From the NCBI GenBank assembly GCA_030063045.1, contig JAQSEB010000004.1:3348001-3412000 (forward strand): a stretch of DNA of 64,000 nt, given 5' to 3'. The position numbers and the translations under genes are program-made. The notes under the pieces were generated by a model. It did not search any database and was not told where the DNA came from. It worked only from the letters and a program-made list of their open reading frames with translations. The DNA comes from Pratylenchus scribneri. Taxonomy: Eukaryota > Nematoda > Chromadorea > Rhabditida > Pratylenchidae. Of the stretch, positions 35,182 to 61,338 are shown piece after piece (the stretch's first letter is position 1; the number at the start of each line of letters is the position of its first letter).

Positions 35182-35233
35182 AGCAGCATTAAGCCTCATT
35201 TGACTGCACTATGCAGTCAAATGAGACTTAAGA
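35182..35233 (+). repeat. Polinton left terminal inverted repeat (52 bp)
   Basis: Starts AGCAGCATTAAGCCTC and is identical to the reverse complement of 61287-61338. Positions 35191-35229 form an imperfect hairpin: an 18-base arm ending GACTGCA, a CTA loop, then TGCAGTC and the return arm with one mismatch. Confidence 0.97.
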
Positions 35234-35259
35234 ATTTAAAATAAATCTTTAAACATTTA

Positions 35260-35769
35260 TCAAATTGAGATAAAAATGTCTACAATATTATAAATTGGAG
35301 TACATATTAAACAATTATTATTAAATGATTTAAAACAATCTATATGTAAAGTATGTGCCATGGAGTTATTACATAATATTAATTCTTTATTATTATATAT
35401 TCCCCGATTAAAACAAATGCAGCAGAATGCTTCTTCATTTTTATTTGGTCTATCCCAATACCATCCTAAATTACATAATATATCATATCGCCGCCATTTA
35501 TAATTAACTGCTCCCCAGAAATGGCTACGTTCCTTTAATAGTTTTCTCATTTTTTGTGTCAATACAATAACTTGATCTTTTCTTTTATTTTTAACTATAC
35601 GTAATAATTTAGCATTGGGAATTGATAAAACCCTAGAAGATAATAATGGACCTTCTTTAGGATGATCTAAAAAATTAAATGTTTCTGCCCAATCTATATC
35701 AAATTTTTATTTATAAGGTATAAAATGAACAATCTCTGCGATTAATTCATTTGGTAATCTAATAGGCAT
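35260..35769 (-). pseudogene. F-box/RING-like protein, interrupted by a stop codon
   Basis: The ATG at 35767-35769 opens MPIRLPNELIAEIVHFIPYK, which matches the start of the intact gene at 36680-37168. An in-frame TAA at 35707-35709 (codon 21) then stops it. Beyond the stop the frame continues without break through DHPKEGPLLSSR to a Cys/His-rich C-terminus (CCICF, LILC, HTLHIDC, NNCLIC) and ends at 35260. The intact paralogue has Ser at the stop position. The gene is therefore either a recently dead copy or is translated from a downstream start. It is the first gene inside the left terminus of the element. Confidence 0.75.
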
Positions 35770-35868
35770 AACTTAATTCAAATTAAAACAATTTGATTAT
35801 AGAAGAAATATTCTAAAGAATTAACTTTTAATAAATTAAAAGAAAAATTTTATTCAAAGTTTTATTGA

Positions 35869-36570
35869 TTAATGATTAATTCCAAATTCGAGACGGATGG
35901 CATCCTTTTCTTCTTCTGTAATGTCCTATAGCTTTATATTTTAATTAATAATTTAAAATTTTCTTACATCAGGAAGGGACAACATTTGCCGTATTTCTTC
36001 AGGTGATTTGTCCATGATTTGTCGGGCACATTCTTGGGCACCTGAAATAGATAGTATTATTTTTTGAGAAAATCGAAAGAACAATAAAAGTAGAGTGTAC
36101 TGATATCGAGGAAATTTGCTGCCGAATAGTATTCCTTAAGAGTTTCAAAATTGACATCAAAAAAGCTGCGTTCCCAATCCGTTAGGGTGAACCAAACACG
36201 CTGAAAATTTATTAATTTCATTTTTTAAATTTATACCTCTTTGGTGATAGGATCCTCTTTGATCATTGGATCCGGTTTTCCATTATGTTGGTCCAACCAT
36301 TCGACGACTTTTTCAAAGCAGATTTTCGAGATACCATTCAAAGGAAAAATAAATGGTTTCTTGGTAATTATGCAATGATCAAATGTCTCTTCCAAACTCA
36401 AATTACTTTTCCACATATTATTAAATGTTTTGGATTTCATCATCAAATGCCATGGCACCTGAATTAATAGTGAAAATATTATTTTTATTTTATTATACTT
36501 CGATAATTTCGCCTTCACTAGTACGACATTTAATTTTGCCTTCAAATTGTTCGGTAATGTTATTTATCAT
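35869..36570 (-). CDS. SKP1-like protein (SCF ubiquitin ligase adaptor), element-borne
   Basis: Five exons on the minus strand joined by 35-60-nt GT-AG introns, giving about 175 residues, the usual SKP1 length. The N-terminal BTB/POZ part has IKCRTSEGEIIEVP and SKTFNNMWKSN, then FEKVVEWLDQH and FETLKEYYSAANFLDIS. The C-terminal F-box-binding helices show CARQIMDKSPEEIRQML and ITEEEKDAIRLEFGIN. SKP1 links F-box proteins to CUL1. It lies between two F-box/RING-like genes of the same element and strand. The introns suggest capture from host genomic DNA. The loop sequence is divergent, so it is not a simple recent host copy. It is inferred to redirect host ubiquitination. Confidence 0.88.
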
Positions 36571-36679
36571 TATATAAACTTAAGGATAATTAATAATTAT
36601 TAATGTTAAAGATATTATAAAAGTAACTATTCATTAATATGAATGTTATTAAAAATAAAATTTTATACAATTTTACAAA

Positions 36680-58704: not shown

Positions 58705-59326
58705 AAGGCAGAAAAAACCATAGATAAAGTCTAAGAGTATTAAAAATTGTATAGTTTCATTCATTATTTTGAATTAGATTCATATTTTGACCAGATATGA
58801 GGATTAATTTCGAACCAATTTTATAATCATTTATCAACTCCCGTGTCTATTCCATCGTTAAATTTTGGACCATCAAGAATCATGAAAAGCAATCTCTTCT
58901 CTCCATTCAGTTTTTTTGATGGTCATTATTTGACTCTGAAATTTTTAAGCCTAAGCCATTTATCATTGCTTATCTTAATATGATTTATAAACTTTTTAAA
59001 AAATTTGATGAAACACAATTTTTGTATAAATATTCTTTCTTCCTTAATGTTTAAAATTAACAATTTTTATATAATGAGTATATTCTATTCAATTTTTAAT
59101 AAATTTTTTTGATAATATTAAAATGAATAATTTTTCATGCTATTCAGCTTTCGTCGACTTTGGAAATATAATTTTTCATAAAAAAATTTGTCTTTAGCCC
59201 TAATAAGAAATTTAATTAATTTTGGTCAAAATTTTAAAGGAAATGAAATTTTTGTTATTTGCCATCTCAAAAAATAGAATTTCACGTGAATAATTTCCAT
59301 TTTAGTTTGTCTGATTTTTATCTAAA
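58705..59326. other. Spacer between the two MA3-type genes
   Basis: 620 nt, AT-rich. The stretch beginning atatgaggattaatttcgaacc at about 58794 reappears after the second MA3 gene (about 60187: atgtgaggatttcgaacc), followed in both by a similar sequence including ttatcaactccc/tttaacaaccct and atcgttaaat. This marks the edge of a tandem duplication. Confidence 0.6.
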
Positions 59327-60005
59327 ATGGAAAACAGGAACAAAAAGTATGCCTTTGATCAAACCGCCTCTTTGCGCAGTTGCCTTTTATAATTCCCCAG
59401 TAATTTCCTTCATTTCCCCATTTTTCTTCATTTTCCCTCAATTTATTCCAAATGAATATCGGCCATTGTCCCCCATTCCTGAAGAAGAGGAATGGCCAAC
59501 CTTGATCCAAACAATTGCTTCAATGGATGAAATTAGCAAAGATCCTTTGGAGCTATGTGGAGAAACGGAATATGCTAAAAGGGAATTTGCCAAATTAATG
59601 ATTAATTTGGTAGAAAACGGCTTTATTACACTCTCAACTCTCCAATTTCTTTATTTTAAAACCGGCGACTTTTTTGAGGCAGCGTTAACTGATGCCATCA
59701 AAATCGCAAGTAGCCGCCATCTTTTGGATCAATCTTGGAAGTTAAATTTAATTTAATTTTTTTAAAATTTTTCATAAAGATGCACGCCTCTCAAACCAAT
59801 TCTTCAAAAACAGAGAAAAATCCAGTCCATAATGGGGGATGATTCCGAATCAGAAAGCGATGGGGACAATGGCATGATGGGGACTTCGGCCATGGCAGCA
59901 TCTACTAGCAAAAATAACCATTTTTTGGCTAATGACCGCCCATCTTCCCCTTTGGATGAAATGATGCAAAATGCTAAACATGGAAATACAAATGGGGATG
60001 AGTGA
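59327..60005 (+). CDS. PDCD4-like MA3-type protein 2, shortened paralogue
   Basis: Tandem paralogue of the preceding gene. It contains LIQTIASMDEISKDPLEL, AKLMINLVENGFITLSTLQF and ALTDAIKIASSRHLLDQ, matching the half-MA3 of gene 1 and the helix after it, but it lacks the complete second MA3 domain. A GT-AG intron (about 59741-59779) joins an acidic Ser/Asp tail (MGDDSESESDGDNG) ending at 60005. The start is uncertain: the ATG at 59327 would need a small intron before the conserved part. It may be a decayed duplicate or a minimal partner-binding form. Confidence 0.55.
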
Positions 60006-60398
60006 AATTGAAATTAACAAAAATAGCAACATTCCAAATTATCAAAATAGTCGTTTAAAAATTTTAGTTCATATATGTTTTCTTTGATCATTTATCAATT
60101 ATCAAGAATTCGCAAATTTTTATTATTCCTTATTCTGCTTGTCTGATTTAATTTAGTTTTCATATTTTTTGAACCATTTTGATTAAATATGTGAGGATTT
60201 CGAACCAATTTCAGATAAACATTTAACAACCCTCCTGCTTATTTTATAATTTATCGTTAAATATTTTCAAAGCCGGTTAGTTATTGCCTGATTTGTCATT
60301 TAATATTGATTTTTTTATTGTAAATAAGAAGAGGATAATGGGATAGGATAAATGGAAAGACGTGGTTTTAATTATGATGGGACAATCATAAAAAGAAA
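60006..60398. other. Spacer, duplicated flank of the MA3 genes
   Basis: 393 nt with the second copy of the duplicated downstream flank at about 60180-60270. No other feature seen. Confidence 0.5.
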
Positions 60399-61134
60399 AT
60401 GTTGCTTTTCCTATTAATTATTCTTCCAACAATATATTCATCTAACCCTATTGTTCACCCTAATATTTGGGTGAAGCAAAACACAGGGCATTATAGGCCA
60501 TTTAGCCTTAATGGGCCAATTCTATCTTTTAATACAACTGAAAAAATAATTGAATTGTGCCCTTGTTCATCGCCCATTGAAAAATTGCAAACAACCCATC
60601 CAACATCCACCACGGGTAAAATTACGCCAACAACCACTCCAACATCCACCATTGGTAAAATTTTGCAAAATTCTGTTAAATCTTCGTTTTTCCCTCGCTA
60701 GGTATTATATGTCCATTCATCACCCTTCCCTCACCACCATCATCCACGGCATGCCCAATTTGCCTACCGGAAAAAATGCCTTTTTTATCAATGGGTAAAA
60801 TTTGGAAGAAAGGACAAAAAATAAATTTTAAGTTTTGCCATTTGTGTTTGGTGTCATTGGAGGGGGTGGCCTTGTTGCAATAACTTGGGGCTTTTTTTAT
60901 ATGAAGAAGAAAAAAAGAAATGCGAAAAAAAGGAATTTTGTAAAAAGTGCAAATTATGAATTTAATGAAATCCGGAATATTCCTCCACTTGAAATTATTT
61001 GTCGTCCTCGGCCACCTGAAAATTCTCCTCCTCCTCCTCCAATTGAAGGGGAATATGATGTACCTTTACCGTTGACCCCCACCCCTTCATTTCAATCACA
61101 TTCATCTCCTGAATATGATACGCCACCGCCATGA
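60399..61134 (+). CDS. Type I membrane protein with Thr-rich stalk and Pro/Tyr-rich tail
   Basis: Three exons (60399 to about 60655, about 60703-60796, about 60834-61134). A signal peptide (MLLFLLIILPTIYSS) leads to a short ectodomain with a Thr/Pro repeat (TTHPTSTTGKITPTTTPTST) likely to be O-glycosylated, and Cys pairs (CPC, CPIC). The TM is FVFGVIGGGGLVAITWGFFY, followed by a Lys/Arg stop-transfer. The cytosolic tail is Pro-rich and has two Tyr-Asp-x-Pro motifs (EYDVPLP, EYDTPPP), a form used by SH2-domain ligands. It is the last gene before the right terminus. It is probably element cargo rather than a core gene. Family unknown. Confidence 0.65.
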
Positions 61135-61286
61135 TTCTTTGTTTTCTTTTCTATATTTATTTTGCATTTAATCCATCCATTTACATCAAATTTTATATTT
61201 GAATTTTAATTCAATATAAATATTAAAAAATATGATAAAATCGTTAAAATTAAATGAAACGTAAAACAAGCGGAATAAAATGACAA

Positions 61287-61338
61287 TCTTAAGTCTCATT
61301 TGACTGCATAGTGCAGTCAAATGAGGCTTAATGCTGCT
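61287..61338 (-). repeat. Polinton right terminal inverted repeat (52 bp)
   Basis: Exact reverse complement of 35182-35233, followed directly by the GATTTC duplication at 61339-61344. It has the same internal hairpin as the left end. Confidence 0.97.

What the first reader, a model, noticed from the sequence alone, without database searches (positions are those of the whole stretch)
35182..61338. Complete Maverick/Polinton with intact ends and a host-gene cargo
Terminal repeats, target duplication, full virion gene set, integrase and PolB are all present in one 26-kb unit. In addition it carries SKP1-like, PAZ, PDCD4-like, zinc-protein and membrane-protein genes. These map to three host control layers (ubiquitination, small RNA, translation), which looks like a virus-style counter-defence toolkit rather than a minimal transposon.
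Basis: partly seen in the sequence, partly recalled or inferred. Interest (0 to 1): 0.93.

Follow-up and report, generated by a model that had tools for sequence, protein, structure and literature searches.

The report
Nematode Maverick carrying a PAZ-only gene
This is a complete virus-like giant transposon in a nematode genome; it carries a small protein made of the RNA-end-gripping part of Argonaute, a gene that many of its relatives in the same genome also carry and that may blunt the host's RNA-based defence.

Summary
The element is real and complete: 26,157 bp (35182-61338), perfect 52-bp inverted ends, GATTTC duplicated on both sides, integrase, PolB, packaging ATPase, adenovirus-type protease and a double-jelly-roll capsid protein. 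Eight more copies with both ends lie in the same genome; six have their own matching 6-bp duplications, and for one the empty site exists in two related regions. The SKP1-like, PDCD4/MA3-like and zinc genes recur in the same layout in seven of the eight, so they are not stray host insertions. The main result goes beyond the finding. The PAZ gene (46883-47260) is a PAZ-only protein under purifying selection (dN/dS 0.07-0.08). PAZ hits lie within 16 kb of 46 of 71 listed PolB loci and in all 9 family elements; 0 of 105 PIWI hits do. PAZ is thus an old resident gene of these Mavericks, not cargo of this one. Most likely it is a decoy that grips small-RNA 3' ends; that step is inferred. The papers found for PAZ with Polinton or Maverick describe no such gene. 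The three-layer 'toolkit' is only partly supported: SKP1 and MA3 matches sit just under Pfam cut-offs, and the right-end membrane gene is hardly shared at DNA level.

The parts
35176..35181 (.). left target-site duplication GATTTC
35182..35233 (+). left terminal inverted repeat, 52 bp, with an internal palindrome
35263..35706 (-). zinc protein 1 (Cys/His-rich ORF), diverged duplicate of zinc protein 2
   Evidence: 72% over 254 bp; dN/dS 0.16-0.26 against 4 copies, but no third-position excess
35956..36440 (-). SKP1-like gene, at least three exon pieces (35956-36042, 36075-36200, 36234-36440 as aligned)
   Evidence: PF01466 E 1.4e-4, just under cut-off; PDB SKP1, best E 0.16, none for the C-terminal piece; pieces gap-free and open in 6 of 6 copies aligned; wider segments dN/dS 0.27-0.69
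36683..37177 (-). zinc protein 2, 165 aa
   Evidence: 3 unnamed homologues; dN/dS 0.22-0.24 against C40, C200, C160
37285..38130 (-). ORF pieces of unknown function (37285-37560, 37636-37797, 37801-38130)
   Evidence: dN/dS 0.11-0.22 for 37285; 37801 has one stop in 4 of 5 copies compared
38310..38699 (+). two small CxxC proteins
   Evidence: mostly synonymous change
38696..39316 (+). A32/FtsK-like packaging ATPase
   Evidence: Pox_A32 2.2e-7; dN/dS 0.03-0.07
39346..39702 (+). conserved small ORF
   Evidence: dN/dS 0.03-0.07
39698..40600 (+). ORF of 300 aa, no family
40582..41667 (+). rve integrase with C-terminal chromodomain
   Evidence: open here, one in-frame stop counted in the C160 copy
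41663..44062 (+). penton candidate (799 aa, long low-complexity insert), one gene upstream of MCP
   Evidence: position only; no Pfam hit; PX position described in PMC4028283 passages
44063..44467 (+). small ORF between penton candidate and MCP
   Evidence: dN/dS 0.07
44499..45944 (+). double-jelly-roll major capsid protein
   Evidence: 99 homologues; model pLDDT 85; viral capsid chains in PDB
45945..46421 (+). adenovirus-type (C5) cysteine protease
46422..46754 (-). ORF of 110 aa, no family over cut-off
   Evidence: dN/dS 0.11
46880..47260 (-). PAZ-only protein, 126 aa, single open frame
   Evidence: PF02170 3.8e-9; Argonaute PAZ in PDB 1e-5; dN/dS 0.07-0.08; linkage; Heterodera relatives
47347..48240 (-). 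membrane-type ORF, 297 aa, C-terminal anchor by eye
   Evidence: relative in Heterodera model P0010, E 4e-16; no real PDB match
48351..52489 (-). family B DNA polymerase in several frame pieces, probably split by introns
   Evidence: PF03175 in three pieces; GT..AG at the one junction inspected
52504..52812 (-). ORF of 103 aa
   Evidence: dN/dS 0.26
53627..54137 (-). two-piece small gene of unknown function
   Evidence: dN/dS 0.04 and 0.13-0.14
57417..60002 (+). PDCD4/MA3-like gene with introns; MA3 exons 58036-58266 and 58292-58525
   Evidence: PF02847 1.5e-4; PDCD4 in PDB; MA3 exon dN/dS 0.08-0.17, other pieces 0.15-0.46, last piece 0.68-1.17
60378..61134 (+). type-I membrane-like gene with proline-rich tail (by eye)
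   Evidence: ORFs only; almost no DNA match in 3 copies
61287..61338 (-). right terminal inverted repeat
61339..61344 (.). right target-site duplication GATTTC

Best explanation
A complete Maverick/Polinton that moves as integrating virus-like DNA, one of a multi-copy, recently mobile family (shown). Besides the virion, replication and integration genes it carries a resident PAZ-only protein (shown), found near PolB in many diverged Mavericks of the same genome. The likely role (inferred): the isolated PAZ domain grips the 3' ends of small RNAs, or competes with Argonaute PAZ for them, and so weakens siRNA/WAGO silencing of the element. The SKP1-like, zinc and PDCD4-like genes are accessory genes; the PDCD4-like one was probably taken as genomic DNA, introns included, from a host gene still present at three places (inferred from homology).
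For: Ends, TSDs and copies; empty site with a single AATGTG in 2 of 2 related regions examined for the C160 copy. PAZ over cut-off, Argonaute PAZ in PDB (62). PAZ near 46 of 71 PolB clusters and in 9 of 9 family elements; 0 of 105 PIWI hits near PolB or in the family; 0 of 141 PAZ places near both. dN/dS 0.07-0.08 against three copies. PAZ relatives in two Heterodera gene models that also hold MCP (121, 122). At the places of human Ago2 R315 and H316 (named in a PDB title), 18 of 20 Maverick rows have Arg or Lys and 20 of 20 have His (123). Meloidogyne: no PRG-1 orthologue found, WAGO, RDE-1, Dicer and RdRP present (passages of PMC5934874). Host MA3 gene: three loci, collinear with the element copy over the first exons.
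Against: No RNA-binding or silencing data. The AlphaFold model of the PAZ failed (pLDDT 42, 6 sequences). 25 of 71 PolB clusters have no listed PAZ within 16 kb, and some clusters are near-identical repeats, so the 46 are not independent. Support for one origin of Maverick PAZ is weak (65/25). At the H316 place the 8 host PAZ rows with a letter have Tyr, not His, so the pocket is not simply the host's. Purifying selection fits any needed function. The host species is not known to be Meloidogyne.
Confidence: 0.6

Rival explanations
1. The PAZ-like protein has kept the fold but serves the virus itself, for example handling nucleic-acid ends during protein-primed replication, packaging or integration, and has nothing to do with RNA silencing.
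For: It sits among core genes, near the protease and MCP, and is about as constrained as they are (dN/dS 0.07-0.08 against 0.03 for MCP and 0.05 for protease); PAZ is an end-binding fold; no expression data.
Against: 25 of 71 PolB loci have no listed PAZ within 16 kb, which would be odd for an essential replication part, though the lists are lower bounds; residues at two Argonaute pocket places are kept.
Confidence: 0.25
2. The element captured host genes recently as passengers: PAZ, SKP1, PDCD4 and the rest do nothing for the element.
For: The MA3 gene has a probable host counterpart with shared introns; the piece 59784-60002 shows no constraint (dN/dS 0.68-1.17); SKP1-like segments show weak constraint (0.27-0.69) and C55 has no match to them.
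Against: PAZ is linked to Mavericks genome-wide; MA3 exons (0.08-0.17) and zinc protein 2 (0.22-0.24) are constrained between copies.
Confidence: 0.12
3. The extra genes are nested host insertions in an otherwise minimal Maverick.
For: One repeat is nested: 54945-55500 matches more than 20 other genomic places and has inverted arms at 55170-55227 / 55428-55485.
Against: Other copies at other sites share the same blocks; one search lists no repeat pair bracketing the blocks, apart from the two zinc genes around the SKP1-like gene.
Confidence: 0.03

Closest known systems
Polintons/Mavericks (Polintoviricetes)
   Same: Integrase, PolB, packaging ATPase, C5 protease, DJR capsid protein, TIR and 6-bp TSD (TIR/TSD as family traits recalled)
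   Different: Short 52-bp palindrome-bearing TIR; PolB in several exon-like pieces; PAZ-only, SKP1-like and PDCD4-like genes, which are not in the Polinton gene set as given in the passages seen of PMC11071308 and PMC4028283
Caenorhabditis Mavericks with wosp/krma cargo and a fusogen (Widen et al. 2023; seen only as a passage of meeting report PMC10680173)
   Same: Nematode Maverick with extra genes taken from hosts
   Different: Other cargo; no fusogen recognised here, though no dedicated search was made
Argonaute PAZ domain (AGO/WAGO)
   Same: PAZ profile and two pocket-place residues of human Ago2
   Different: No PIWI domain nearby; extra N-terminal segment also seen in other Maverick PAZ rows and in the Heterodera relatives
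Viral suppressors of RNA silencing such as P19, B2, viral RNase III (recalled; also named in search listings)
   Same: Proposed outcome: small RNAs bound or removed
   Different: None known to me is PAZ-based

Membership tests
Polinton/Maverick | terminal inverted repeats and 6-bp target duplication | tested here: met
Polinton/Maverick | rve integrase | tested here: met
   40.3 vs cut-off 32.6 bits
[quoted passage not shown]
   three pieces of PF03175, two over cut-off; terminal-protein part not tested
Polinton/Maverick | double-jelly-roll MCP | tested here: met
Polinton/Maverick | penton (single jelly roll) | tested here: inconclusive
   candidate 41663-44062 by position; no family hit
Polinton/Maverick | packaging ATPase and Ulp1/C5-type protease | tested here: met
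   both over cut-off
PAZ domain | PF02170 over curated cut-off | tested here: met
   37.0 vs 28.8 bits
Argonaute | PIWI domain in the same gene | tested here: not met
   126-aa ORF; 0 of 105 PIWI hits inside family elements
Viral suppressor of RNA silencing | binds small RNA or blocks silencing | not testable with these tools
   needs bench work
SKP1 | PF01466 / PF03931 over cut-off | tested here: not met
   22.1 vs 22.3 and 13.4 vs 21.9 bits on single exons; weak, all SKP1; none
PDCD4/MA3 | PF02847 over cut-off | tested here: not met
   22.2 and 13.8 vs 23.2 bits on single exons; PDCD4 is the only PDB relative of both exons

The most novel reading that the evidence does not exclude
Tylenchid-nematode Mavericks encode an old, widespread family of PAZ-only proteins that act as suppressors of small-RNA silencing by capturing small-RNA 3' ends: a kind of viral silencing suppressor built from the host's own guide-binding domain, carried by most of the listed elements of a genome.
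Probability: 0.5. Interest if true: 0.87.

Novelty: new variant of a known kind. Interest (0 to 1): 0.74.

Why it matters
How giant virus-like transposons persist under small-RNA defence in animals is open. A conserved PAZ-only gene in many Mavericks of a nematode group, in which Meloidogyne species showed no PRG-1 orthologue but kept siRNA/WAGO pathways (PMC5934874 passages), gives a direct, single-protein test. It also says that the family's extra genes differ in age: PAZ is old and shared, the PDCD4-like gene is known here only from this family and its host counterpart.

Tried and rejected
Nested-insertion reading: rejected. SKP1-like gene as a decayed pseudogene: suggested (frameshifting gaps) and by the dN/dS of wider segments; withdrawn as to frameshifts after one search showed the exon pieces open and gap-free in 6 of 6 copies, though constraint remains weak. 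Empty site for the C78 copy: not resolvable, since it sits in a minisatellite; for this reason its TSD is weak evidence too. Empty site for the window copy: no match starts at the beginning of the right flank; the left flank was not searched. Relatives in IMG/VR: none. PHROGs: only transposase families for the integrase, and one chance-level row. AlphaFold of PAZ: failed. PDB sequence search with MCP and the 297-aa membrane ORF: only chance-level rows. First tree attempt lacked the host rows because a result file was cut; repeated. Genome counts are lower bounds: 72 of 318 PolB, 150 of 256 PAZ and 130 of 162 PIWI candidates were scored, and 150 of 158 PolB matches were listed and used. In one search some pieces showed stops or frame-shifting gaps in copies (for example 58036-58266: one gap and one stop in 5 of 5 family copies; integrase: one stop in C160); exon edges were not defined, so these were not interpreted.
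Full report
What the window holds. The window is contig C4:3348001-3412000 of a 227-Mb assembly. The element runs from 35182 to 61338 (26,157 bp) with perfect 52-bp inverted arms and GATTTC on both sides. Each arm contains its own near-perfect palindrome (sequence). The host is therefore most likely a tylenchid plant-parasitic nematode (inference).

Core genes. ATPase, rve integrase with chromodomain and C5 protease pass Pfam cut-offs. PolB is found in three pieces, two over cut-off, spread over several frames. The one junction inspected has GT..AG between the frames, so introns are likelier than decay (inference); the piece tested has dN/dS 0.07-0.08. The MCP model (pLDDT 85, 45 sequences) matches viral capsid chains; all 50 rows shown are such. 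The penton is only inferred from its place one gene upstream of MCP, as described for PX in passages of PMC4028283.

Other copies. The left 3.5 kb is found end to end in seven other places at 91-92%, and the right block in the same seven over three long stretches, at 79-82% for the two longer and 76-77% for the third. C55 is a more distant eighth copy with only parts of the right block matched. All eight have both ends. Six have matching duplications of their own: C78 GACGAC, C160 AATGTG, C15 CAAGCC, C31 AATGGT, C40 CACTGT, C55 CATAAT (C78 is in a minisatellite). In C200 and C20 the two ends do not match each other, but each matches the opposite end of the other (GGAAAA and CACATT), as after reciprocal exchange between near-identical elements or an assembly crossover. 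Two regions related to the C160 site (89% over the left flank; C45 and C209, sisters or paralogues) carry the uninterrupted sequence with a single AATGTG (92-93% over 130-132 bases). Copies fall into tight groups: C200/C20/C78 at 99.9-100%, C40/C31 at 99.2-99.9%, C160/C15 at 99.5% left and 94.5% right; the window copy stands apart. The family has moved since those regions diverged (inference).

Mosaic history. Against C160, synonymous divergence runs from 0.09 (integrase) through 0.14 (penton candidate), 0.25 (PAZ), 0.31 (MCP) and 0.53 (ATPase) to 1.0 (protease). That spread within one element suggests recombination between diverged Mavericks (inference; no formal test was made).

PAZ. ORF 46883-47260 on the minus strand is a 126-aa PAZ protein (PF02170 3.8e-9; Argonaute PAZ in PDB). 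Five unnamed proteins of 126-141 aa are full-length relatives. Two gene models of Heterodera trifolii hold MCP together with a PAZ relative: P0014 (40% over 111 aa, E 9e-30; Pfam 3e-4, under cut-off) and P0090 (35% over 100 aa, E 6e-10; not found by Pfam). The match includes the N-terminal segment that lies outside the Pfam PAZ match. In this genome PAZ hits lie within 16 kb of 46 of 71 listed PolB clusters and within 12 kb of 42; about 1.1 PAZ places would be expected within 12 kb of a cluster by chance, against 41 of 141 found. Some clusters are near-identical repeats, so they are not all independent. Controls: 0 of 105 PIWI hits, 0 of 28 Skp1 hits and 1 of 6 MA3 hits lie within 16 kb. Of 141 PAZ places, 45 are near PolB, 9 in the family elements, 32 within 10 kb of PIWI (ordinary Argonautes), 55 near neither, 0 near both. 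A profile built from Maverick PAZ scores rows at 88-199 bits (Maverick type) and 14-57 bits (host type), with C109 at 63; host rows are exon fragments, which lowers their scores. The tree puts the 20 rows that I labelled Maverick on one side of the 9 labelled host, with weak support (65/25). Five of the 20 (C142, C1_3006, C132, C37, C109) were labelled by score, not by a PolB neighbour, one (P0106) is an unnamed protein, and one of the 9 host rows (C104) has no PIWI neighbour. At the places of human Ago2 R315 and H316, 18 of 20 Maverick rows have Arg/Lys and 20 of 20 have His; the 8 host rows with a letter have Tyr at the second. dN/dS is 0.07-0.08 against C160, C200 and C55; against C1 synonymous change is saturated.

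SKP1-like, zinc and PDCD4-like genes. The SKP1-like exon pieces are open and gap-free in 6 of 6 copies aligned, but are only weakly matched to SKP1 (negative) and weakly constrained. They lie between two diverged copies of the zinc gene; C55 shows no match to them and has one zinc copy. Zinc protein 2 also has DNA relatives 3-8 kb from PolB in C45, C48, C15 and C155. The two MA3 exons are closest to PDCD4, are constrained between copies (0.08-0.17), and resemble a gene at C114, C98 and C20, outside the family elements (84-87% over the first exon, 70-72% over the next kilobase). The order and short introns are collinear, so capture was probably at the DNA level (inference). The last piece, 59784-60002, shows no constraint. 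The right-end membrane gene has almost no DNA match in the three copies compared.

Mechanism. Shown: complete element, mobile family, PAZ resident and constrained, no PIWI partner found. Inferred: PAZ alone grips small-RNA 3' ends and acts as decoy or competitor. In Meloidogyne no PRG-1 orthologue was found, but WAGOs, RDE-1, Dicer and RdRP were (passages of PMC5934874), so if the host is alike the target would be siRNAs.

Literature. Library searches for PAZ domain with Polinton gave 2 papers and with Maverick 2 papers; the passages seen in these four (12 of 15 places in PMC11753138, all places in the others) do not describe a PAZ gene in such elements. One search (three of six terms) listed 20 of 286 papers, of which two were opened. 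Widen et al. 2023 was not looked up and is known only from the passage in PMC10680173; Jeong et al. 2023 is not held. Prior mention there is not excluded.

Noticed in passing
L033/L018 (C200) and L032/L020 (C20): Two near-identical copies have exchanged one flank each: the 6-bp duplications GGAAAA and CACATT match across the two loci. Reciprocal exchange or assembly crossover.
   Followed up: partly
35182-35233 and 61287-61338: Each terminal repeat holds its own near-perfect palindrome of about 20-bp arms, so single-stranded ends could fold into hairpins.
   Followed up: no
35263-37177: Two diverged zinc-protein genes flank the SKP1-like gene as direct repeats; C55 has one zinc copy and no match to the SKP1-like exons.
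   Followed up: partly
53124-53413: Short block that changes less between copies (about 4-5% in its plus-strand ORFs) than its surroundings (about 18%), with no family hit.
   Followed up: no
54945-55500: Nested repeat with inverted arms, found in more than 20 other genomic places.
   Followed up: partly
48351-52489: PolB is in several frame pieces here, whereas many PolB loci elsewhere in this genome lie in open frames of about 1,400 aa; probable intron gain.
   Followed up: partly
PAZ alignment, residue 86 of the window PAZ: His in 20 of 20 Maverick PAZ rows, Tyr in the 8 host rows with a letter: a possible marker of the Maverick type.
   Followed up: partly
P0090 (Heterodera trifolii) and P0074 (Meloidogyne hapla) gene models: MCP-containing gene models also hold a TBP domain (P0090) and part of a ubiquitin-conjugating domain, under cut-off (P0074); may be element genes or fused models.
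   Followed up: no
16568-18132: Minisatellite of 35-bp units, about 31 near-identical copies in its first part, outside the element.
   Followed up: no
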